In this document: in pieces, positions 12,207 to 38,953 of the stretch | Numbering within the stretch: position 1 is the stretch's first letter | Layout of the letters: each line of letters begins with the position of its first letter | Assembly (NCBI GenBank): GCA_944358455.1 | Contig: CALVRE010000036.1 | Span: 1 to 47,676, forward strand | Direction: 5' to 3' | DNA length: 47,676 nucleotides | Source of the DNA: an uncultured Bacilli bacterium | GTDB lineage: Bacteria > Bacillota_I > Bacilli_A > RF39 > UBA660 | Program-made: the position numbers and the translations under genes | The notes under the pieces: generated by a model | Databases searched by the model: none | What the model saw: the letters and a program-made list of their open reading frames with translations, nothing else | Told to the model about the DNA's origin: nothing

Positions 12207-12218
12207 GAGAGGTTTTTT
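12191..12218 (+). terminator. Bidirectional terminator between RNHCP and repeat-protein genes
   Basis: A perfect 12-bp stem AAAAAACCTCTC / GAGAGGTTTTTT with a four-base loop. It has T-runs on both strands and sits between convergent genes. Confidence 0.9.
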
Positions 12219-13276
12219 TATGCAGCTTTTAATACTTGCATCAATTGAGGCAACAATAAAATTAAGATTCCCAATACAACAAAGATAGTAACGACAAAGA
12301 TAATAGCTTTCTTATTTGTTTGAGATTCATCTTTATGTGTCTCCGCTTTGATTTCTTCTTTTAAGTTATTACTTGACAAAGTATCTTCTACTTTTAATAT
12401 TTGATCATTAATATTAGTTGGCGTAGATGCTTCCACTTCTTTTAAAACTTCTTTTTCTTCTGGAGTTGTAGCAACCGGTGCCGGTTCCATCGGTGGTATT
12501 GTTGTCGTATAAGTTGGTACTTGACTCTGTCCATCATCGACATCAAATGCCGAATAATTCAAATCACCAGTATTCATGTTTGAAGGATTTTCATTCATCA
12601 TCTTAGTATAATCTTCTGACACGCCTGTATCAAATCCAGTAAAGGTTGGTACCGCATCAACCTGAGGTTGCGTATTTGGTACTTCAAAACCGCTAAAAGA
12701 AGGCACTTCTACTGTTGACATTGCTGGTTCGATCTCTGGTGTTAGGTCAACATTTGATGTCATCGTTGGCTCTACTGGAGCAGCTTCTACTGTTGGCATC
12801 ACTGGCTCAATCTCCGGTGTTGGATCAACATTTGATATCATCGTTGGCTCTACTGGAGCAGCTTCTACTGTTGGCATCACTGGCTCGATCTCTGGTGTTA
12901 GTTCAACATTTGATGTCATCGTTGGCTCTACTGGAGCAGCTTCTACTGTTGGCATCACTGGCTCGATCTCTGGTGTTGGATCAAAACTTGATGTCATCGT
13001 TGGTTCTACTGGAGCAGCTTCTACTGTTGGCATCACTGGTTCAATCTCCGTTGTTGGATCAACATTTGATATCATCGTTGGTTCTGCTGAATTATTTGAA
13101 ACTTGATTTACATTGTCAATTAACTGTTCTTCTTTACTATTTGTTGACATATTTTCAACAGGTAAAGTTTCTGCTTGTACCACTTGTGTTTCTTGTGAAT
13201 TAGAAATTTCTTCTTCATCATCAAAGAAATCTAACACTTCAATTTCATCATCTAAGATATTGTTTTTATTATCCAT
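12218..13276 (-). CDS. Tail-anchored acidic repeat protein
   Basis: 352 aa. Acidic N-terminus (DDEIEVLDFFDDEEE), then five 26-residue repeats (residues 65-194, core EPTM-SNVDPTPEIEPVMPTVEAAPV), a Ser/Thr/Pro/Asn-rich linker, a KK-flanked hydrophobic helix (about 322-345, KKAIIFVVTIFVVLGILILL) and a short tail. No signal peptide, so the likely topology is a cytosolic stalk anchored in the membrane by its C-terminus. No family recognised. The repeats are low-complexity and near-identical at DNA level, implying recent copy-number change. RBS AGGTATCATT before ATG. Confidence 0.75.
   Translation of the reverse strand: MDNKNNILDDEIEVLDFFDDEEEISNSQETQVVQAETLPVENMSTNSKEEQLIDNVNQVSNNSAEPTMISNVDPTTEIEPVMPTVEAAPVEPTMTSSFDPTPEIEPVMPTVEAAPVEPTMTSNVELTPEIEPVMPTVEAAPVEPTMISNVDPTPEIEPVMPTVEAAPVEPTMTSNVDLTPEIEPAMSTVEVPSFSGFEVPNTQPQVDAVPTFTGFDTGVSEDYTKMMNENPSNMNTGDLNYSAFDVDDGQSQVPTYTTTIPPMEPAPVATTPEEKEVLKEVEASTPTNINDQILKVEDTLSSNNLKEEIKAETHKDESQTNKKAIIFVVTIFVVLGILILLLPQLMQVLKAA
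12695..13084 (-). repeat. Five tandem 78-bp coding repeats
   Basis: Five in-frame 78-bp units (26 codons). The inner units differ by only a few bases; the last one diverges at its end (VEVPSF). No spacers, so it is not a CRISPR array. Confidence 0.85.
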
Positions 13277-18853: not shown

Positions 18854-19195
18854 TTACTCTTCTATACATGCATTTAATAAGGTCATAATACTGATCAAAT
18901 CATTATCACTTAATTTTTCGACAAAAGTTAAATGCCTAGCTTCATAATCAATACTTCTAATATGCTCACACAAAACAGAACCATGAATTTTTTTTGTATC
19001 TTCTAATAAATAATGAGTTGGAAAATACTTTTGATTAGAGGTGACTGGGCACACCATCACCATGTGGGTGTTTTGATTAAACACATTACCACTAACGACT
19101 ATCGCTGGACGAAATCCTGCTTGTTCATGCCCTTTTGTGGGATTAAAATCAAAAAAGACGACATCTCCTTGTTTAGGTACATATTGCTTTACCAT
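18854..19195 (-). CDS. mazF: MazF/PemK-type endoribonuclease toxin
   Basis: 113 aa. Typical MazF fold: QGDVVFFDFNPTKGHEQAGFRPAIVVSGNVFN (dimer/RNA-binding N-terminus), MVMVCPVTSN, and GSVLCEHIRSIDYEARHLTFVEKLS. It cleaves single-stranded mRNA and is neutralised by the upstream antitoxin. Its ATG overlaps the end of mazE by 7 nt, the classical antitoxin-first arrangement with coupled translation. Length is normal and no residue loss is obvious. Confidence 0.93.
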   Translation of the reverse strand: MVKQYVPKQGDVVFFDFNPTKGHEQAGFRPAIVVSGNVFNQNTHMVMVCPVTSNQKYFPTHYLLEDTKKIHGSVLCEHIRSIDYEARHLTFVEKLSDNDLISIMTLLNACIEE

Positions 19196-19561: not shown

Positions 19562-20446
19562 TTATTTAAACCCTAATTGAGTTCTATACTCAATTGGGGT
19601 TTTATATTGTAATGCATAACTAGGTCTGTAATTGTTATGATCCTCTATAATTACATTAATATAATCTTCAACAGTTTCATAATCATCTTGATTAAAATCT
19701 ATATACATTTCTTTCTTTAACCAACCATTTTTTGATTCAATTATTGGATTATCTGTCGGCGTTCCTATTCTCGACATTGATCTAGTTATGGTATAATCTT
19801 TATGTACTTGTGAAAGTGCAATTGATGAGTATATGATTCCTTGATCGCTGTGCATAATTGTATCTTGGGATTCATATCCTCTTTTTATTTTACTTTCTAA
19901 CATATTTTCTAAAGCTAATTTGTGATTCGTCGGATTACTACAATGTAAAAACGGTTTTACATTTAAGCCTATTATTTCATCATTAAAAACATCTATATAA
20001 TATGTCCAATCATATCTTTGTTTTTTAAACCATATCACTGTTGTATCTGTTACAACCTTTTCTAATGGTCTAGAAGTATTCCAATTACCATTAATTAAAT
20101 TTGGATATTTCATCGATTCTTCTCCTGGCTTTTTATAAGTTGAATAATGTCTAGCTTTACTTCTTATTTTTAATATCTTACATATCTTATGAACTAAATT
20201 ATCGGACACTATCCATCCTGTTTCTCTGCGAATAATCGCATTTATTCTATGATATCCATAACTAGGCTTTCTTTTATGAATATCTCTAATTAATGGTTCT
20301 AAGTTTTTACGATTAATTTCATGCCTATTTAAGATATTCCTTGTTTTTAACCATTTGTAATATCCACTTCTAGATATGTTCATCACTTCACATAAAGATT
20401 TAACTGAATATTCTGCGCTTAATGTTTCTACTATTTCGAAGTCCAA
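19562..20446 (-). CDS. IS3-family transposase OrfB (DDE integrase)
   Basis: 294 aa. N-terminal HTH_21-like part (SVKSLCEVMNISRSGYYKWL, PSYGYHRINAIIRRE), then an rve integrase core with the three acidic residues visible in VTDTTVIW, MHSDQG and IIESKNGWLKKE. The D-D-E triad is intact, so it may be active. The first possible in-frame start is a TTG at 20446. Translation is more likely by -1 frameshifting from OrfA at an AAAAAG run (20454-20449). Confidence 0.93.
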   Translation of the reverse strand: MDFEIVETLSAEYSVKSLCEVMNISRSGYYKWLKTRNILNRHEINRKNLEPLIRDIHKRKPSYGYHRINAIIRRETGWIVSDNLVHKICKILKIRSKARHYSTYKKPGEESMKYPNLINGNWNTSRPLEKVVTDTTVIWFKKQRYDWTYYIDVFNDEIIGLNVKPFLHCSNPTNHKLALENMLESKIKRGYESQDTIMHSDQGIIYSSIALSQVHKDYTITRSMSRIGTPTDNPIIESKNGWLKKEMYIDFNQDDYETVEDYINVIIEDHNNYRPSYALQYKTPIEYRTQLGFK

Positions 20447-20799
20447 AACTTTTTCTCGTCTACTACTACAACTGTACCATCTCCTTTCACGAGGTAACCT
20501 TTTTTTAATCGTTCATTTTCAATTCTTAACTTCATATTCTCATATTGAAGTTTTTCTATATCTGTCAGATTCTTCTTATTTGAATATTTACATAATGGAT
20601 TTCCTGGTCTCTTTTTAGATATTAATCCATCCATCCCTTTTTCACGGTATTTTTTAATCCAATTATTAATCATTCCATTATTTAATCCAGTTTCTCTAGT
20701 AATATCCCATGTGCTTTTTTCCATATTTAATGCGGGTTTAATTATTTGATATTTTTCTTCTGTAGTCCAATATTTAAATTTTTGTCCTTTCCTTGCCAT
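20431..20799 (-). CDS. IS3-family transposase OrfA
   Basis: 122 aa. HTH_Tnp_1-type N-terminus (WTTEEKYQIIKPALNMEKSTWDITRETGLNNGMINNWIKKYREKG), then a leucine-zipper-like coiled coil (DIEKLQYENMKLRIENERLKKG). Ends VVVVDEKKFWTSK and overlaps OrfB by 16 nt in the -1 frame. RBS AAAGGAGTTGAAAAT. It binds the IS ends and regulates or forms the OrfAB fusion. Confidence 0.93.
   Translation of the reverse strand: MARKGQKFKYWTTEEKYQIIKPALNMEKSTWDITRETGLNNGMINNWIKKYREKGMDGLISKKRPGNPLCKYSNKKNLTDIEKLQYENMKLRIENERLKKGYLVKGDGTVVVVDEKKFWTSK
20449..20455 (-). other. Probable -1 frameshift site of the IS3 element
   Basis: Minus strand GAG AAA AAG: an AAAAAG run in the OrfA/OrfB overlap. After AAG, a -1 slip continues as GTT TTG GAC TTC, which is the OrfB frame. 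The run has five A residues, one fewer than the optimal A-AAA-AAG heptamer. Confidence 0.6.
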
Positions 20800-33487: not shown

Positions 33488-33515
33488 ATATAAAAACGAA
33501 CTATTTCTAGTTCGA
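33488..33515. repeat. Left copy of the 28-bp direct repeat (tRNA-Val terminator duplicate)
   Basis: 28 bp, starting ATATAAAAACGAACTA and ending TAGTTCGA, identical to 38459-38486. Read on the minus strand it is a terminator (CGAACTA-GAAA-TAGTTCG-TTTTTATAT), but no RNA gene precedes it here. The pair encloses the accessory operon and may be attachment-site copies. Confidence 0.75.
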
Positions 33516-33852: not shown

Positions 33853-33984
33853 TCAAAGTTGATAGTCAGAAAATTTTTTATTTCTGCCTAATTCTTTAGC
33901 AATTTGGTTCATGGATTTATTTTCATGTAATCCATCTTCAGTATTTTTTCTATTTTCATAAGATAGGTGACAATAATTTGCCAT
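33853..33984 (-). pseudogene. IS30-family transposase N-terminal fragment
   Basis: A 43-residue frame MANYCHLSYENRKNTEDGLHENKSMNQIAKELGRNKK, then KFSDYQL and stop. The pattern H-LSYE-R---E--L-E-KS-NQIAKELGR is the HTH N-terminus of IS30-type transposases (usually continuing S-ISREI), followed by an abrupt break. AAGGAGATATTAAGA precedes the ATG. The DDE domain is absent from the window. Confidence 0.65.
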
Positions 33985-34148
33985 TCTTAATATCTCCTTA
34001 ACGGCAAATAAATTTCTTAGGAAGATATTATATATGTTTTCAAAACTTATCGCAAATTGATTGTGCACTTTGAAAAAAATCTACAAATTCAAAGATTATT
34101 TTGTTTTCTATTTTTTAATTCCTAAAAAATTATCATTTCGTGATATAC

Positions 34149-34171
34149 TATAATAGTAATATGTAAGGAGG
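34149..34171 (+). promoter_or_regulatory. -10 element and strong RBS of the accessory operon
   Basis: TATAAT at 34149-34154 and AAGGAGG at 34165-34171, 10 bp before the first ATG. No good -35 at 16-18 bp, which may mean activator dependence or an extended element. Confidence 0.45.
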
Positions 34172-34181
34172 TATATTTGAA

Positions 34182-34733
34182 ATGAATGAACTTTTCGATG
34201 TTTTAAATGAATTAGGTGAATTTACTGGTAATGTTGCTAGTAGCGATGAATGTCATAAAAATGGATATTGGCATAGAGCCGTTTATGCATTTATAATTGA
34301 TAAAAATTTTAATATATTACTTCAAAAGAGAAGTAAAAATAAAAAATTATGGCCAAATAAATGGGATGTTACCGTTGGTGGTCATGTTAACGCCGGAGAA
34401 TTTGGTAGACAAGCATTGATTCGAGAATGCAAAGAAGAATTAGGAATTGATGTAAAAGACAATGAAATTAAGTATATCGTCGGAACTACATCAGTATATA
34501 ATAAAAATGGATATATAAATAATCATTTTGACGAATGCTATTTAATTTTAAAAGATGTTGATATTAAGACATTAAAATTACAAAAGGGTGAGGTTGAAGA
34601 TGTTAAATATTTTCCTTGTGATGAAATAATTAACAGAATAAATGATAACTATAATGGATTAACTGAAAAAAATGTTTCATGGCATATCTTAAAGAGATTA
34701 TTGGAAAGTGACATTATTAGTCAATTAAAATAA
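34182..34733 (+). CDS. NUDIX hydrolase (IPP-isomerase-like subgroup)
   Basis: 183 aa. The Nudix box GHVNAGEFGRQALIRECKEELG fits Gx5Ex7REUxEExGU (G67, E73, R81 E82, E85 E86), preceded by WHRAVYAFIIDKNFNILLQKRSKNKKLWPNKWDVTVGG, as in IPP-isomerase-like and related NUDIX proteins. Such enzymes hydrolyse nucleoside diphosphate-X compounds; the substrate here is unknown. First gene of a tight operon with two DNA glycosylases, so a nucleotide-pool role is plausible but inferred. Its codon use is more AT-rich than the flanking genes, and none of the five operon genes overlaps the chromosomal core functions around it. Confidence 0.9.
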   Translation: MNELFDVLNELGEFTGNVASSDECHKNGYWHRAVYAFIIDKNFNILLQKRSKNKKLWPNKWDVTVGGHVNAGEFGRQALIRECKEELGIDVKDNEIKYIVGTTSVYNKNGYINNHFDECYLILKDVDIKTLKLQKGEVEDVKYFPCDEIINRINDNYNGLTEKNVSWHILKRLLESDIISQLK

Positions 34734-34750
34734 ATTTATAAAAGAACATT

Positions 34751-35404
34751 ATGAAAACGATTAAATATGATATTAGCAATGAAAAAGTGAAAACATTATT
34801 ATCAACCGATAAGTTTTTAAATCAATTAATAAAATATATCCAATGTTCCGAGTTGATAATAGAACCCGATGGATTTAGTTGTATTATAAAATACATTATA
34901 GGCCAACAAATAAGTGATAAAGCAAGAGAAACAATTTGGAACAGATTTAAGTCTAAATTTACACCTATTGATCCAAGTTATATCTTAACTGTTAACAATA
35001 GCGAGATAAAAGCAATAGGATTATCCGAAAGAAAAGTGGCTACAATAAAAAGAATTGCTTTAGAAATTGTGAATGGTAATTTAGATTTTAATAATTATAT
35101 TTATTGCACAAATGAACAAATAATAGAAGATTTGACAAAAATTAAAGGCATTGGACGTTGGACTGCCGAAATGTATCTTATCTTTTCTTTGGGCCGAGAG
35201 GATATTTTATCAAAATCTGACGGAACAATAAAACGAACTATAAAATGGATGTATAATTTATCAGAATTACCAACTAGTCAAGATATTAAAATATATTTTG
35301 AAAAATGGAAGGGTTATGAAACAATCGTGTCTACATTTTTATGGAAATCTATTGAGTTAGATTTAGTAAAAAATGAATTTAGTAAAACAATACCATTTGA
35401 GTAG
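34751..35404 (+). CDS. HhH-GPD DNA glycosylase (AlkA/3-methyladenine type)
   Basis: 217 aa. IIKYIIGQQISDKARETIWNRF (AlkA-like first helix, QQIS), then helix-hairpin-helix LTKIKGIGRWTAEMYLI (about 128-144) and the downstream Asp in SKSDGTIKR (D157, catalytic candidate). It would excise alkylated or otherwise damaged bases. It lacks the AlkA N-terminal domain and a Fe-S cluster loop. Weak Shine-Dalgarno (AAAAGAAC) 17 bp after the NUDIX stop, so translation is probably coupled. Confidence 0.88.
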   Translation: MKTIKYDISNEKVKTLLSTDKFLNQLIKYIQCSELIIEPDGFSCIIKYIIGQQISDKARETIWNRFKSKFTPIDPSYILTVNNSEIKAIGLSERKVATIKRIALEIVNGNLDFNNYIYCTNEQIIEDLTKIKGIGRWTAEMYLIFSLGREDILSKSDGTIKRTIKWMYNLSELPTSQDIKIYFEKWKGYETIVSTFLWKSIELDLVKNEFSKTIPFE

Positions 35405-35413
35405 GAGTTTAAC

Positions 35414-36649
35414 ATGGAAAAAATTAAATTAGAATTAATGAAAGAAACAATAAATATTGCTATTAAAAATGATGATATTTTTGTGGGTGTAATAGTAGCC
35501 AACAATGGTAAGATACTTTGTTCTAATAAATATCAAAACAATAATGATTGGGCAGAATGTATTTTAGGCGGTTTACAAAAATTAAATATTAATGAAGCTG
35601 AAGAACTTTATTTAACTATAAATACATATAAAGATGGTAATTTTAGTTTAAATAAAATTATACAGAAAATCAAAATACATCAAATTTATATTGGACTACC
35701 TGATCCTAAATTAAATAGATATTTAAAAAATGATCCTGTCTTACAATTTCAAAATATAAATAGATATCCAGAAAATTTACAAAAAATTATAATTTCAAAA
35801 AATTATAATTCATTTTCTAATAGTTTACAAAGTATAAAAAATAATATATATTATTCAGAAAAAAGAATAAGTGAATTTGTAAAAGAACAATTGTCAAAGT
35901 ATGGATTAAATATATCAAAAGAGGAAATAAATAACAACAAAACTACAGATAAGCTGATTACGCTTTTAATCGATAAGTATAATTATTCTATTAAAGATGC
36001 AAATTATATTGTAAATACTTCACTATCTAATGCTTTTAATAAAAAATATGCATTGTATGATTACAAAAATGATGTGCGGAGTATAAATAATCATTGGAGT
36101 GACACTTTTTTTAAAGCATGTAAAGAACTTTCAGGTGATTTATTTAATGAGAATATAATAGATGTTGGAGTTGGTTCTGGAAATGAGGCTTCAAAACTAT
36201 TTAAAAACTGTAAGCGTATTACTTTTGTAGATATTGCGCCTGATGGCCTAAAAAAAATTAAAAAGATAATTCCTCAATCAAAAATAATTGTTTCATCAGC
36301 TGAAAATTTAGAAATGATTAATAATAATGAATATGATATTTATATTTCATTAAGAACATTTAATTCCTCTTTTTTTAATATTGAAAAAACATTAAATGAA
36401 GCAAAAAGAATTTTAAAATCAAATTCTAGAATTATGATTTCTATTGCAAATGGTTTTTTAAGTTCTAATTCTTCAATAATTCCCGGATTAATTATTCCTG
36501 GGACAGATTTTGTTGATATTTATAAAGGTTTAGATAGTATTAAAAATCTTATTAATATTATGTCTAGATTAGGGTTTGAAAAGTTCAAATTACTTACTAC
36601 AAATGAGGAAATTTATTTATTGGCAAAATTAAACAAAGAAGGGAGTTAA
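35414..36649 (+). CDS. Degenerate deaminase-like domain fused to a class I methyltransferase
   Basis: 411 aa. Residues about 1-105 follow the cytidine-deaminase/RibD plan (MKETINIAIKNDDIFVGVIVANNGKILCSNK...DWAECI...ELYLTINT...IYIGLPDPKLN). The zinc-binding HAE is WAE (46-48) and the PCxxC is missing, so it cannot be a normal zinc deaminase. A roughly 130-residue helical middle follows, then a SAM methyltransferase with motif I IIDVGVGSGNEASKL (about 248-262), acidic motif II FVDIAPDG and YDIYISLRTFNSS. The Rossmann part is complete, including a terminal beta pair. RBS TAGGAGTTTAAC. Substrate unknown. Confidence 0.75.
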   Translation: MEKIKLELMKETINIAIKNDDIFVGVIVANNGKILCSNKYQNNNDWAECILGGLQKLNINEAEELYLTINTYKDGNFSLNKIIQKIKIHQIYIGLPDPKLNRYLKNDPVLQFQNINRYPENLQKIIISKNYNSFSNSLQSIKNNIYYSEKRISEFVKEQLSKYGLNISKEEINNNKTTDKLITLLIDKYNYSIKDANYIVNTSLSNAFNKKYALYDYKNDVRSINNHWSDTFFKACKELSGDLFNENIIDVGVGSGNEASKLFKNCKRITFVDIAPDGLKKIKKIIPQSKIIVSSAENLEMINNNEYDIYISLRTFNSSFFNIEKTLNEAKRILKSNSRIMISIANGFLSSNSSIIPGLIIPGTDFVDIYKGLDSIKNLINIMSRLGFEKFKLLTTNEEIYLLAKLNKEGS

Positions 36650-36656
36650 ATAAATT

Positions 36657-37400
36657 ATGAATGATAATCAATTTACTTCACAAAAAATAATTGAATTTGA
36701 TCGTTTTTTGTCAAATATTGAACTTTCCGTACCTGATGGATTTAAAATAATTAATCCATTTTGTGGTGATTCAAAAGAAAAAATTAACCAAATTATAGAA
36801 ATTTTTTACCATAAATTTTATAATGATAATAAAAAAAGAAGGATGATTTTAGGAAGCTCACCAGCTAGAAGAGGAACGGCAATTACAGGAATACCATATG
36901 AAGATGCTCAGCATTTACAAAATCAAACTGGAATTTTTATAGATGATTTTTATGTTAATAAATCATCATCAAATTTTTTATATGATGTCATAGATATGTA
37001 TGGTGGAACTGATAAATTCTATAATGATTTTTATGTGAATTTTATATGTCCGTTGGGAATCGTAAGGATAAATTCAAAAGGTAGAGAAGTTAATTGTAAT
37101 TATTACGAAAATAAGAAATTACAGGAAACTTTATATGACTTTATAATACAAACTTTAAAAATGCAAATGGAATTTAATATTGATAGATCGGTATGCTATT
37201 GTATTGGAAGCGGAGAAAATTATGAATTTTTAAAAAAGATAAATGAAAAATATTGCTTTTTTGATAAAATAATTCCACTAGAGCATCCACGTTTTATAAT
37301 GCAATATAACTCAAAAAACAAAGAATATTATTTAAATAAATATTTAAGTGCACTCACAAAAAACGCAAAGGAGACTAAAAGTTATGGAAGAAAAAAGTAA
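36657..37400 (+). CDS. SMUG2/DUF4918-type uracil-DNA glycosylase
   Basis: 247 aa with the DUF4918 (SMUG2) pattern of the UDG superfamily: ILGSSPARRGTAITGIPYE (residues 64-82), PLGIVRINSKGREVNCNYY (132-150), CIGSGENYEFLKKIN and the C-terminal PLEHPRFIMQYNSK (207-220). Expected to excise uracil or a related base from DNA. RBS AAGGGAG. It starts 7 bp after the methyltransferase fusion and overlaps the next gene by 17 nt. Confidence 0.85.
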   Translation: MNDNQFTSQKIIEFDRFLSNIELSVPDGFKIINPFCGDSKEKINQIIEIFYHKFYNDNKKRRMILGSSPARRGTAITGIPYEDAQHLQNQTGIFIDDFYVNKSSSNFLYDVIDMYGGTDKFYNDFYVNFICPLGIVRINSKGREVNCNYYENKKLQETLYDFIIQTLKMQMEFNIDRSVCYCIGSGENYEFLKKINEKYCFFDKIIPLEHPRFIMQYNSKNKEYYLNKYLSALTKNAKETKSYGRKK

Positions 37401-38163
37401 AAGATTTGTTCACTTTGAAACAAATAGAACAACAATTTACGAAGTACAAAACAAACAAATTATTAAAATTAAAGAAGATGTCCTATATTTTAATGAAACA
37501 TTAGTGAATAATGAGTTGTATGATAAACTAGATCAGTATTTATATAGTTTAAATAATGAAAATATATTTAATACTAAGAATATAAGATTATGTGCAACAG
37601 GAATTTTTCAAGAATTTTCATTAAATGAACAAATTCAATTAATTATTCATATCTTTGTAAAACATGGAATTTATTTTAATATTATTAATAAAGAATTAGA
37701 ACAATTCTATTTAAATCAAGAAATAAATAATAAAAAAGTAAATAATATAATTGAAGGGATGTGGAAACAAGAATTTAGAAAAGTTGTTATATGTGGAAGT
37801 TTTCAAAAAAATATGACGGAAATATGTGAATTAATGGATAAATTAAAACAACATAATGTTGAAATATTAAGTCCATGGACAAAAGATGTTGTTCAGGAAA
37901 CACTAGATACAGACTTTATTTTACTTGAAGGTCAAACTTTAGAAAATGAAAGAGATTCATGGAGACATAAGTATGATCATATGAATAAATTCATAAAAGC
38001 CGACGCCATCATTGTATGTAACCCTAATGGTATTATTGGTAAAGGAACAATGTTTGAATTTGGATTTATTACTGCTTATAATAAGAGAGTTATTTTTACA
38101 AACGAACCAAAAGACATGTCTATTCTGTTCCCATATGAAACTGGATTAAATAACATTAAATGA
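37384..38163 (+). CDS. Nucleoside 2-deoxyribosyltransferase-like protein
   Basis: 259 aa. The C-terminal half matches the NDT/BlsM-like superfamily: VVICGSFQKNMTEICELMDKL (134-154), a DHMNKFIKADAIIVCNPNGIIGKGTMFEFGFI core (about 198-229, Glu225 candidate nucleophile), then NKRVIFTNEP. The N-terminal 130 residues are not recognised. The family cleaves or exchanges N-glycosidic bonds of (deoxy)nucleosides or nucleotides. The start is ATG 37384 with AAAGGAGACTAAAAGTT, not the longer frame from 37348. Last gene of the operon; ends well before the terminator. Confidence 0.8.
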   Translation: MEEKSKRFVHFETNRTTIYEVQNKQIIKIKEDVLYFNETLVNNELYDKLDQYLYSLNNENIFNTKNIRLCATGIFQEFSLNEQIQLIIHIFVKHGIYFNIINKELEQFYLNQEINNKKVNNIIEGMWKQEFRKVVICGSFQKNMTEICELMDKLKQHNVEILSPWTKDVVQETLDTDFILLEGQTLENERDSWRHKYDHMNKFIKADAIIVCNPNGIIGKGTMFEFGFITAYNKRVIFTNEPKDMSILFPYETGLNNIK

Positions 38164-38364
38164 AAAGACGAAATGGATATGAACTTCTCCTCTCCTTTCA
38201 GTCTGCTAATCACTATTTAACTAAATTATATATTCTTCTGTACAAAGTTCCCTTTGTAGGGAGAAAAGCTAGTATTCGATCAATGAATCATCTATTGATG
38301 TATCTTTACTAGCCATAGAAATTTGTATAGCACTTGACTCTCAGATATTTTTATATTCATAAGA
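38164..38364. other. Operon 3' untranslated stretch
   Basis: No credible coding frame or RNA gene. It holds a small TTCCCT/AGGGAG hairpin (about 38249-38264) without a clear T-tract, then ordinary AT-rich sequence up to the operon terminator. Confidence 0.5.
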
Positions 38365-38412
38365 TGTACATGGATTAATCATTTATAGTGATTGGTCCAT
38401 GTGCATTTTTTT
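38365..38412 (+). terminator. Strong terminator of the accessory operon
   Basis: A 17-bp stem (TGTACATGGATTAATCA / TGATTGGTCCATGTGCA, complete with G-U pairs), loop TTTATAG, followed by seven T. Confidence 0.88.
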
Positions 38413-38458
38413 GATATTGCCTCATTCCACGTATGAAATATTTCTAGATTTTTAAAAC

Positions 38459-38486
38459 ATATAAAAACGAACTATTTCTAGTTCGA
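38459..38486 (-). terminator. tRNA-Val/ssrA terminator; right copy of the 28-bp repeat
   Basis: Minus strand CGAACTA-GAAA-TAGTTCG followed by TTTTTATAT, 12 bp past the tRNA 3' end. The 28 bp are identical to 33488-33515. Confidence 0.85.
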
Positions 38487-38498
38487 CCAATTTTCCTA

Positions 38499-38575
38499 TG
38501 GTGGGAGATATAGGACTCGAACCTATGACCTCTTGCACGTCAAGCAAGCGCTCTAACCAACTGAGCTAATCACCC
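38499..38575 (-). tRNA. tRNA-Val (GAC)
   Basis: 77 nt with encoded CCA. The anticodon arm CTTGC-TTGACGT-GCAAG gives GAC. D-arm TAGCTCAGTTGGTTAGAGC and T-arm ATAGG-TTCGAGT-CCTAT are intact. In the acceptor, GGGTGAT faces ATCTCCC: pair 4:69 is T-T, the rest pair. It follows the tmRNA by one base and would be processed from the same transcript. Confidence 0.93.
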
Positions 38576-38576
38576 A

Positions 38577-38953
38577 TGGTGGAGCTGAGGAGAATTGAAC
38601 TCCTGTCCGAAAATACCGCACCATAGATATCTACAAGTTTAGTCGACTATGTTATGTCCTAATAAGTGTTAGTAGTCGACACCCCACTCATTAGTAAGTC
38701 TATCAGATTCGTGACTACTTATAGACATCATAGTCATATATCCCATTCATCGAGCCCTCAGAAATTCTCATGGGAGAAGAATTAAGAGAGCTGCATCCCG
38801 CTAGTTCTATTAAGCGAAAGTAGGAGCGAAAGAAGCCCCTCTGAATGCATTAACTAATTTTTCTTTAGCATTTATATTTAGCTTTTGTACGTAACGTGTA
38901 CCTCCGACTTGCAACCTAAGGCCTAATATTTCCGTCGAAACCAAAGCAGCCCC
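38577..38953 (-). ncRNA. ssrA: tmRNA (transfer-messenger RNA)
   Basis: 377 nt. 5' end GGGGCTG pairs with 3' CAGCTCC-ACCA, including the G3-U70 Ala identity pair; the TTTGGTTTCGACGG and GGAGTTCAATTCTCC T-arm segments are typical. The likely tag frame runs 38869 to 38810, GCT AAA GAA ... GCT TAA TAG, reading AKEKLVNAFRGASFAPTFA. It ends in FA rather than LAA, similar in style to Mollicutes tags. The exact resume codon is inferred. It rescues stalled ribosomes with SmpB (gene at 40216) and directs products to proteases such as ClpXP. Confidence 0.95.

What the first reader, a model, noticed from the sequence alone, without database searches (positions are those of the whole stretch)
34182..38163. 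Five-gene base-excision/nucleotide-processing operon: candidate undescribed system
Seen: a tight operon (gaps 17, 9, 7 bp, then a 17-nt overlap) of NUDIX hydrolase, AlkA/HhH glycosylase, degenerate-deaminase/methyltransferase fusion, SMUG2/DUF4918 uracil glycosylase and NDT-like protein, in more AT-rich sequence than the flanking chromosome and closed by its own strong terminator. Known: each family acts on modified nucleotides, bases in DNA, or N-glycosidic bonds. Inference: two base-removing enzymes plus pool-cleaning (NUDIX), N-glycoside cleavage/transfer (NDT-like) and a methyltransferase could form a pathway that recognises and removes a particular non-canonical base. Possible settings are defence against phages with modified or uracil-containing DNA, self-protection, or metabolism of a modified nucleoside. 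No defence genes are nearby to decide.
Basis: partly seen in the sequence, partly recalled or inferred. Interest (0 to 1): 0.85.

Follow-up and report, generated by a model that had tools for sequence, protein, structure and literature searches.

The report
Mobile base-excision and nucleotide-sanitising gene cassette
A small cluster of genes that travels between unrelated bacteria always carries the same three enzymes, and they look built to cut one kind of abnormal building block out of DNA and out of the cell's nucleotide supply; no paper or database that could be searched here describes it, and it may be an immunity device against a DNA poison or a virus.

Summary
The five-gene operon is real (gaps 17, 9 and 7 bp, then a 17-nt overlap; 22-25% GC against about 33%). 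It lies in a roughly 5-kb island between perfect 28-nt repeats beside tRNA-Val/tmRNA. A fused degenerate deaminase/methyltransferase, a SMUG2-like DNA glycosylase and a DNPH1-like nucleotide N-glycosidase occur in that order in 29 of 29 loci with enough contig, across Bacilli, Clostridia, one alphaproteobacterial MAG and actinomycetes, and were inherited together. An AlkA-type glycosylase (12 of 18 non-actinomycete loci) and a NUDIX (4, one a remnant) are optional. The cassette is rare, sits in a different place in almost every lineage, decays in a sister species, and is absent from 2.9 million viral contigs. In 15 of 16 actinomycete loci an acyl-ligase/ketosynthase/thioesterase cluster follows; the copy closest to the actinomycete ones lies in a defence island. 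Most likely the cassette removes one non-canonical base from DNA and the nucleotide pool. Whether it faces a genotoxic natural product (slightly favoured) or modified-base phages is not settled by sequence, and a biosynthetic role remains possible. No dedicated model in PADLOC, PHROGs or NCBIfam, and no paper found.

The parts
33488..33515 (.). left copy of a perfect 28-nt direct repeat (candidate attachment site; contains a terminator-like hairpin)
   Evidence: the repeat finder family D3; hairpin 33514-33497
33853..34068 (-). 71-aa remnant with a helix-turn-helix like that of transposases
   Evidence: ORF; Pfam HTH_38 4e-07; the IS30 assignment is a reading only
34085..34181 (+). leader/promoter region that travels with the cassette
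   Evidence: homology with L008, where the cassette lies elsewhere, starts at 34085
34182..34733 (+). NUDIX hydrolase (accessory), intact Nudix box GHVNAGEFGRQALIRECKEELGI
   Evidence: homologues in the same place in L008, L010, L024, remnant in L009
34751..35404 (+). AlkA/Mag1-type HhH-GPD DNA glycosylase (accessory), Asp at the catalytic position kept (SDGTIKR)
   Evidence: (PDB 2h56 3.5e-44)
35414..36649 (+). core 1: RibD/CDA-like deaminase fold without metal ligands (1-110), helical linker, class I SAM methyltransferase (about 200-411)
36657..37400 (+). core 2: SMUG2-subfamily uracil-DNA-glycosylase fold with altered motif 1 (GSSPARRG instead of GINPGRFG)
37384..38163 (+). core 3: Ppx/GppA-like actin lobe (4-129) fused to a DNPH1/NDT-like (deoxy)nucleotide N-glycosidase domain (130-259), nucleophile-position Glu225 invariant
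38362..38408 (+). terminator-like hairpin with T run after the operon
38459..38486 (.). right copy of the 28-nt direct repeat, overlapping the terminator-like hairpin of tRNA-Val
38499..38953 (-). tRNA-Val and tmRNA next to which the island sits

Best explanation
A mobile 'excise and sanitise' immunity cassette aimed at one particular non-canonical base. Proposed flow: the SMUG2-like enzyme (and, where present, the AlkA-type enzyme) cuts the base out of DNA; the DNPH1-like enzyme cuts the same base off its (deoxy)nucleoside 5'-monophosphate so that it cannot re-enter DNA; the NUDIX, where present, turns the triphosphate into the monophosphate that the DNPH1-like enzyme needs; the deaminase-fold/methyltransferase protein binds the freed base or nucleotide and methylates it, which keeps it from being reused. 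In actinomycetes the core serves as self-protection inside a biosynthetic cluster, and the lone mobile copies in gut Firmicutes are acquired resistance to a base-damaging or base-analogue natural product. Shown: the families, the key motifs, the linkage and the mobility. Inferred: every reaction, the order, the substrate and the selecting agent.
For: Core trio in fixed order in all 29 loci with room on the contig; matched divergence, r 0.94-0.96 over 32-33 loci and 0.75-0.84 without actinomycetes, 0 of 2000 shuffles. All base-removing enzymes keep key residues: AlkA Asp, DNPH1/NDT-position Glu, UDG motif-2 His. Fold matches of the third protein's C-terminal half: DNPH1 Z about 10, MilB Z 9.6; DNPH1 clears hmdUMP from the pool and SMUG1 excises hmU from DNA (PMC10603095), so the pairing has a known precedent. 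Streptomyces: the glycosylase is in 9 of 296 genomes, and the nine closest copies of the cluster ketosynthase (87% identity or more) are in exactly those nine, about 3.5 kb away; the next ones are 73% or less and their fetched neighbourhoods lack the trio. DNA glycosylases as self-resistance in biosynthetic clusters are known (PMC9040887, PMC8934636; abstracts). Trio and ligase/KS genes have diverged to similar degrees. The deepest actinomycete copy, L027, lacks the ligase/KS genes, so the cassette need not depend on them.
Against: No substrate is known and nothing was tested biochemically. The residue aligned with the motif-1 Asn of SMUG enzymes is Ser in all copies, so activity or specificity must differ. 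The methyltransferase step is a guess; its domain resembles small-molecule methyltransferases generally. The product of the Streptomyces cluster is unknown. Most Firmicute copies have no biosynthetic neighbours.
Confidence: 0.4

Rival explanations
1. Anti-phage system against phages with a modified pyrimidine, most naturally 5-hydroxymethyluracil: NUDIX turns hmdUTP into hmdUMP, the DNPH1-like enzyme destroys hmdUMP, the SMUG-type enzyme makes abasic sites in hmU-DNA, in the manner of Brig1/Brig3.
For: L018, the sister of all actinomycete copies (support 100), lies directly behind a type III restriction-modification system and a DISARM-like helicase, with prophage-like genes on the other side. 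UDG-superfamily defence enzymes exist (PMC11078745, PMC13160076). DNPH1 and SMUG1 act on hmdUMP and hmU. Patchy, mobile, decaying distribution.
Against: Only 1 of 18 non-actinomycete loci is in an evident defence island; no PADLOC model matches the core beyond general NUDIX and methyltransferase similarity; actinomycete copies are tied to biosynthetic genes; motif 1 differs from SMUG enzymes.
Confidence: 0.25
2. Biosynthetic module: the core builds or releases a nucleobase-derived metabolite (DNPH1/MilB-like release of a base from a nucleotide, RibD-like binding, methylation), with the glycosylases protecting the maker; in Streptomyces the product is joined to an acyl chain.
For: MilB and BlsM are NDT-fold nucleotide hydrolases of antibiotic pathways (established knowledge) and MilB is among the fold matches; the methyltransferase matches include a toxoflavin-pathway enzyme, 5ufm, Z 16.1; conserved ACP-ligase/KS/KS/ACP-thioesterase neighbours in 15 of 16 actinomycete loci; Roseburia locus L013 sits beside an acyl ligase, ACP, SDR and ABC exporters.
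Against: Most Firmicute cassettes stand alone with no ligase, transporter or other biosynthetic gene; two DNA glycosylases are hard to explain as biosynthetic; Saccharothrix L027 lacks the ligase/KS genes.
Confidence: 0.2
3. Ordinary accessory base-excision repair, a bundle of housekeeping-type repair and pool-cleaning genes without a specific enemy.
For: Nearly every part belongs to a repair or pool-cleaning family; Listeria carries a lone glycosylase of this very subfamily outside any cassette.
Against: Very rare and patchy: 2 of 97 relatives, 1 of 392 phylum members; horizontal spread across phyla; strict co-inheritance; an obligate methyltransferase/deaminase-fold partner; decay in a sister species.
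Confidence: 0.1

Closest known systems
Human DNPH1 / SMUG1 handling of 5-hydroxymethyl-dU
   Same: pairs a SMUG-type DNA glycosylase with a DNPH1-fold nucleotide N-glycosidase
   Different: bacterial mobile operon; the DNPH1-like domain carries a Ppx/GppA actin lobe; motif-1 Asn of SMUG is Ser; obligate methyltransferase partner; substrate unknown
Brig1 and Brig3-BapA anti-phage glycosylases
   Same: UDG-superfamily enzymes encoded in mobile or defence settings
   Different: those act as one or two genes; no DNPH1-like, AlkA-like or methyltransferase partner is mentioned in the passages read; the cassette is mostly outside defence islands
Self-resistance DNA glycosylases of genotoxin clusters (AlkZ, YtkR2/AlkD, TxnU/LldU)
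   Same: DNA glycosylase inside a Streptomyces biosynthetic cluster
   Different: here a SMUG2-type enzyme, with a nucleotide N-glycosidase and a methyltransferase as fixed partners
SMUG2 (PDB 5h0j)
   Same: full-length sequence match, E 2e-77, motif-2 LEHPRFIMQY identical
   Different: motif 1 GSSPARRGTAVTG instead of GINPGRFGSGLTG in every cassette copy aligned
MilB/BlsM CMP hydrolases of nucleoside antibiotics
   Same: NDT-superfamily nucleotide N-glycosidase next to biosynthetic genes in actinomycetes
   Different: fused actin-like lobe; tied to DNA glycosylases

Membership tests
SMUG2 subfamily of UDG | full-length profile similarity to SMUG2 | tested here: met
   E 2e-77 to 5h0j over residues 6-235
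SMUG2 subfamily of UDG | motif-1 Asn (GINPG) | tested here: not met
   Ser in all 19 aligned copies including Listeria; GSSPARR invariant. Hence called SMUG2-like
SMUG2 subfamily of UDG | motif-2 His-Pro | tested here: met
   LEHPRF in 34 of 34
AlkA/Mag1 HhH-GPD glycosylases | HhH-GPD fold with catalytic Asp | tested here: met
DNPH1/NDT N-glycosidases | NDT fold | tested here: met
   PF05014 in 29 of 29; DNPH1 Z about 10
DNPH1/NDT N-glycosidases | nucleophile Glu | tested here: met
   G-x-GT-x-FE-x-G in all 32 copies, aligned with the Glu motif of NDT 1s2d
DNPH1/NDT N-glycosidases | general-acid Asp (DNPH1 D80) | tested here: inconclusive
   no reliable residue alignment to DNPH1 was obtained; the region is strongly conserved
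active cytidine/RibD-type deaminase | zinc ligands H/CAE and PCxxC | tested here: not met
   Trp46 at the HAE site, Asn70 and Phe77 invariant, no PCxxC; fold similarity only
base-excision restriction-modification (restriction glycosylase plus DNA MTase) | DNA amino-methyltransferase motif IV [DNS]PP[YFW] | tested here: not met
   the region after strand 4 reads SLRT[YF]NSSFF in all; nearest folds are small-molecule MTases
Brig-type anti-phage glycosylase | located in defence islands | tested here: inconclusive
   1 of 18 non-actinomycete loci by PADLOC (L018); the other loci were read by eye only
Brig-type anti-phage glycosylase | restricts phages with modified bases | not testable with these tools
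   needs plating
biosynthetic-cluster self-resistance glycosylase | fixed linkage to a biosynthetic cluster | tested here: met
   actinomycete copies only: 15 of 16 loci, and 9 of 9 Streptomyces genomes in a sample of 296
biosynthetic-cluster self-resistance glycosylase | removes the adduct of the cluster's product | not testable with these tools
   product unknown

The most novel reading that the evidence does not exclude
A previously undescribed class of immunity system that attacks one foreign base at three levels at once (triphosphate, monophosphate, and base in DNA), with a methyltransferase built on a dead deaminase that handles the freed base and an actin-like lobe that may control the nucleotide-destroying enzyme.
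Probability: 0.3. Interest if true: 0.85.

Novelty: new variant of a known kind. Interest (0 to 1): 0.62.

Why it matters
DNA glycosylases as weapons or shields are a recent theme in phage defence and antibiotic self-resistance, known here as single genes or pairs. A conserved mobile unit that couples DNA base excision to destruction of the same base in the nucleotide pool would be a new architecture. The Streptomyces copies point to an uncharacterised biosynthetic cluster whose product should carry or create the target base, so the target can be sought chemically.

Tried and rejected
Viral origin: three scans of 2.9 million viral contigs with MT, NDT and UDG alignments gave no relative, nor did the single UDG protein. 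The 'Listeria phage' records H9-H12 look like host chromosome in unverified assemblies, because neighbouring genes match the Listeria chromosome-like record. Base-excision restriction-modification: motif IV absent. Synteny of the insertion site in other genera of the family: not conserved at tmRNA, so the empty site could not be shown. S. salivarius plasmid copy: UDG fragment only, interrupted. L039: weak methyltransferase-only match, discarded. Distant AMP-ligase match in Roseburia (23%) is family-level only. Small conserved genes in the 76-213 bp gaps of the actinomycete trio: gap lengths vary between loci and no gene was called there in L105; not examined further. Literature: no paper found that pairs these families.

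Full report
Observation. The operon sits in a roughly 5-kb island bracketed by a perfect 28-nt direct repeat (33488-33515 and 38459-38486); the right copy overlaps a terminator-like hairpin next to tRNA-Val and tmRNA. That suggests integration at this RNA locus, but no integrase remains; a 71-aa helix-turn-helix remnant lies upstream. Homology to a 91%-identical copy in L008, which has different neighbours, runs from 34085 to 38156 and so gives the limits of the travelling unit. A same-genus genome holds the unit at the same site in a decayed state: the AlkA-type gene and the first part of the methyltransferase gene are deleted, the NUDIX gene is reduced to fragments, and the last gene has an internal deletion.

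Recurrence. A scan of about 85,000 species genomes with the methyltransferase alignment returned 31 true loci: 18 in Bacilli, Clostridia and other MAGs, including one labelled Alphaproteobacteria and one labelled Rickettsiales, and 13 in actinomycetes. In all 29 loci whose contig extends far enough, the order methyltransferase, UDG, NDT-like is kept; L009 holds only remnants and in L037 the methyltransferase is truncated. The AlkA-type gene precedes the trio in 12 of the 18 non-actinomycete loci, NUDIX in four (one a remnant), both intact only in the window and L008; neither was found in the 16 actinomycete loci examined (13 genomes and 3 plasmid records). Distance matrices of the three core proteins agree closely (r 0.94-0.96 in all, 0.75-0.84 without actinomycetes, 0 of 2000 shuffles as high). 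This is co-inheritance of a unit, the opposite of what would have refuted the finding.

Mobility and rarity. Gene neighbours differ in almost every lineage: in L015/L038, two related genomes, the unit lies with a serine recombinase inside what reads as a penicillin-binding-protein gene; in L037 between relA-like fragments; in L014 in a conjugative-looking element; in L018 behind a type III restriction-modification system and a DISARM-like helicase, with prophage-like genes opposite. PBP, relA, conjugation and prophage labels are readings of sequence, not searches. Only 2 of 97 relatives and 1 of 392 phylum members carry it. A lone glycosylase in Listeria falls within the cassette branch (support 0.86, unrooted tree).

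Proteins. The UDG is SMUG2-like but has Ser where SMUG2 has the motif-1 Asn (GSSPARRG against GINPGRFG). The AlkA-type enzyme keeps its catalytic-position Asp. The methyltransferase protein begins with a deaminase fold (13 of 19 members match dCMP_cyt_deam_1) that lacks zinc ligands but is strongly conserved, so it probably binds rather than deaminates; the model is confident (pLDDT 90.6) and its C-terminal domain resembles small-molecule methyltransferases. The last protein is a fusion (pLDDT 86.8): an N-terminal lobe like Ppx/GppA (Z up to 12.7) and a C-terminal domain like DNPH1 (Z about 10) and MilB (Z 9.6) with the nucleophile-position Glu invariant. L018 additionally encodes a Ppx/GppA-like protein directly upstream.

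Actinomycetes. In 15 of 16 loci the trio is followed by an ACP-acyl ligase, a ketosynthase pair and an ACP-thioesterase, with similar divergence. In 296 Streptomyces genomes the glycosylase occurs nine times, and the nine closest copies of the ketosynthase are in the same nine genomes; related ketosynthase clusters (73% identity or less) lack the trio. In a concatenated tree the actinomycete copies form one clade (99) whose sister is the defence-island copy L018 (100), and the deepest actinomycete copy, from Saccharothrix, lacks the ligase/KS genes. So the biosynthetic association looks secondary (the tree was midpoint-rooted).

Interpretation. All four base-acting enzyme types cleave either N-glycosidic bonds or the nucleotide that feeds them. 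The closest precedent is DNPH1 plus SMUG1 acting on hydroxymethyl-dU. The best reading is a unit that removes one foreign base from DNA and from the pool. Producer self-resistance and acquired resistance to a natural product is slightly favoured because of the actinomycete context; modified-base phages, especially hmU phages, are the main rival and are suggested by L018. A biosynthetic role for the core remains possible. None of these is shown; the substrate is unknown.

Novelty. PADLOC, PHROGs and NCBIfam have no dedicated model and paper searches found no description; the library lacks most subscription journals and DefenseFinder was not available, so an earlier report elsewhere cannot be excluded.

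Noticed in passing
window 18854-19195 (-): PemK/MazF-type toxin gene (Pfam 6.8e-26); a partner antitoxin was not looked for.
   Followed up: no
window 19562-20799 (-): Two overlapping ORFs that read like an IS3-type transposase pair; not tested.
   Followed up: no
window 12218-13276 (-): Protein with near-identical tandem repeats (PTVEAAPVEPTM...) and a C-terminal hydrophobic segment.
   Followed up: no
L018 8412-9314 (+): A Ppx/GppA-family protein (Pfam 3.1e-09) is encoded a few bases upstream of the cassette, in which the last protein also carries a Ppx/GppA-like lobe.
   Followed up: partly
L038 8408-9193 and L015 3641-4426: A DUF5655-containing protein, with weak matches to PADLOC candidate family PDC-S18, sits between the cassette and the interrupted host gene; a serine recombinase lies on the other side.
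   Followed up: partly
L013 13424-14743 (Roseburia): The cassette is followed by a thymidylate-kinase-like gene and a fragment of S-adenosylmethionine synthetase, both fitting a nucleotide/methylation theme or chance.
   Followed up: partly
Streptomyces loci, e.g. L003 14739-15128 (-): A small protein on the opposite strand after the thioesterase is conserved in 15 of 15 actinomycete clusters with the ligase/KS genes, and distantly in L027; it reads like another nucleoside-deoxyribosyltransferase-like protein but has no Pfam match above cut-off.
   Followed up: partly
window 38239-38440: Parts of the sequence after the operon, including the hairpin region, recur in other contigs of related genomes.
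   Followed up: no
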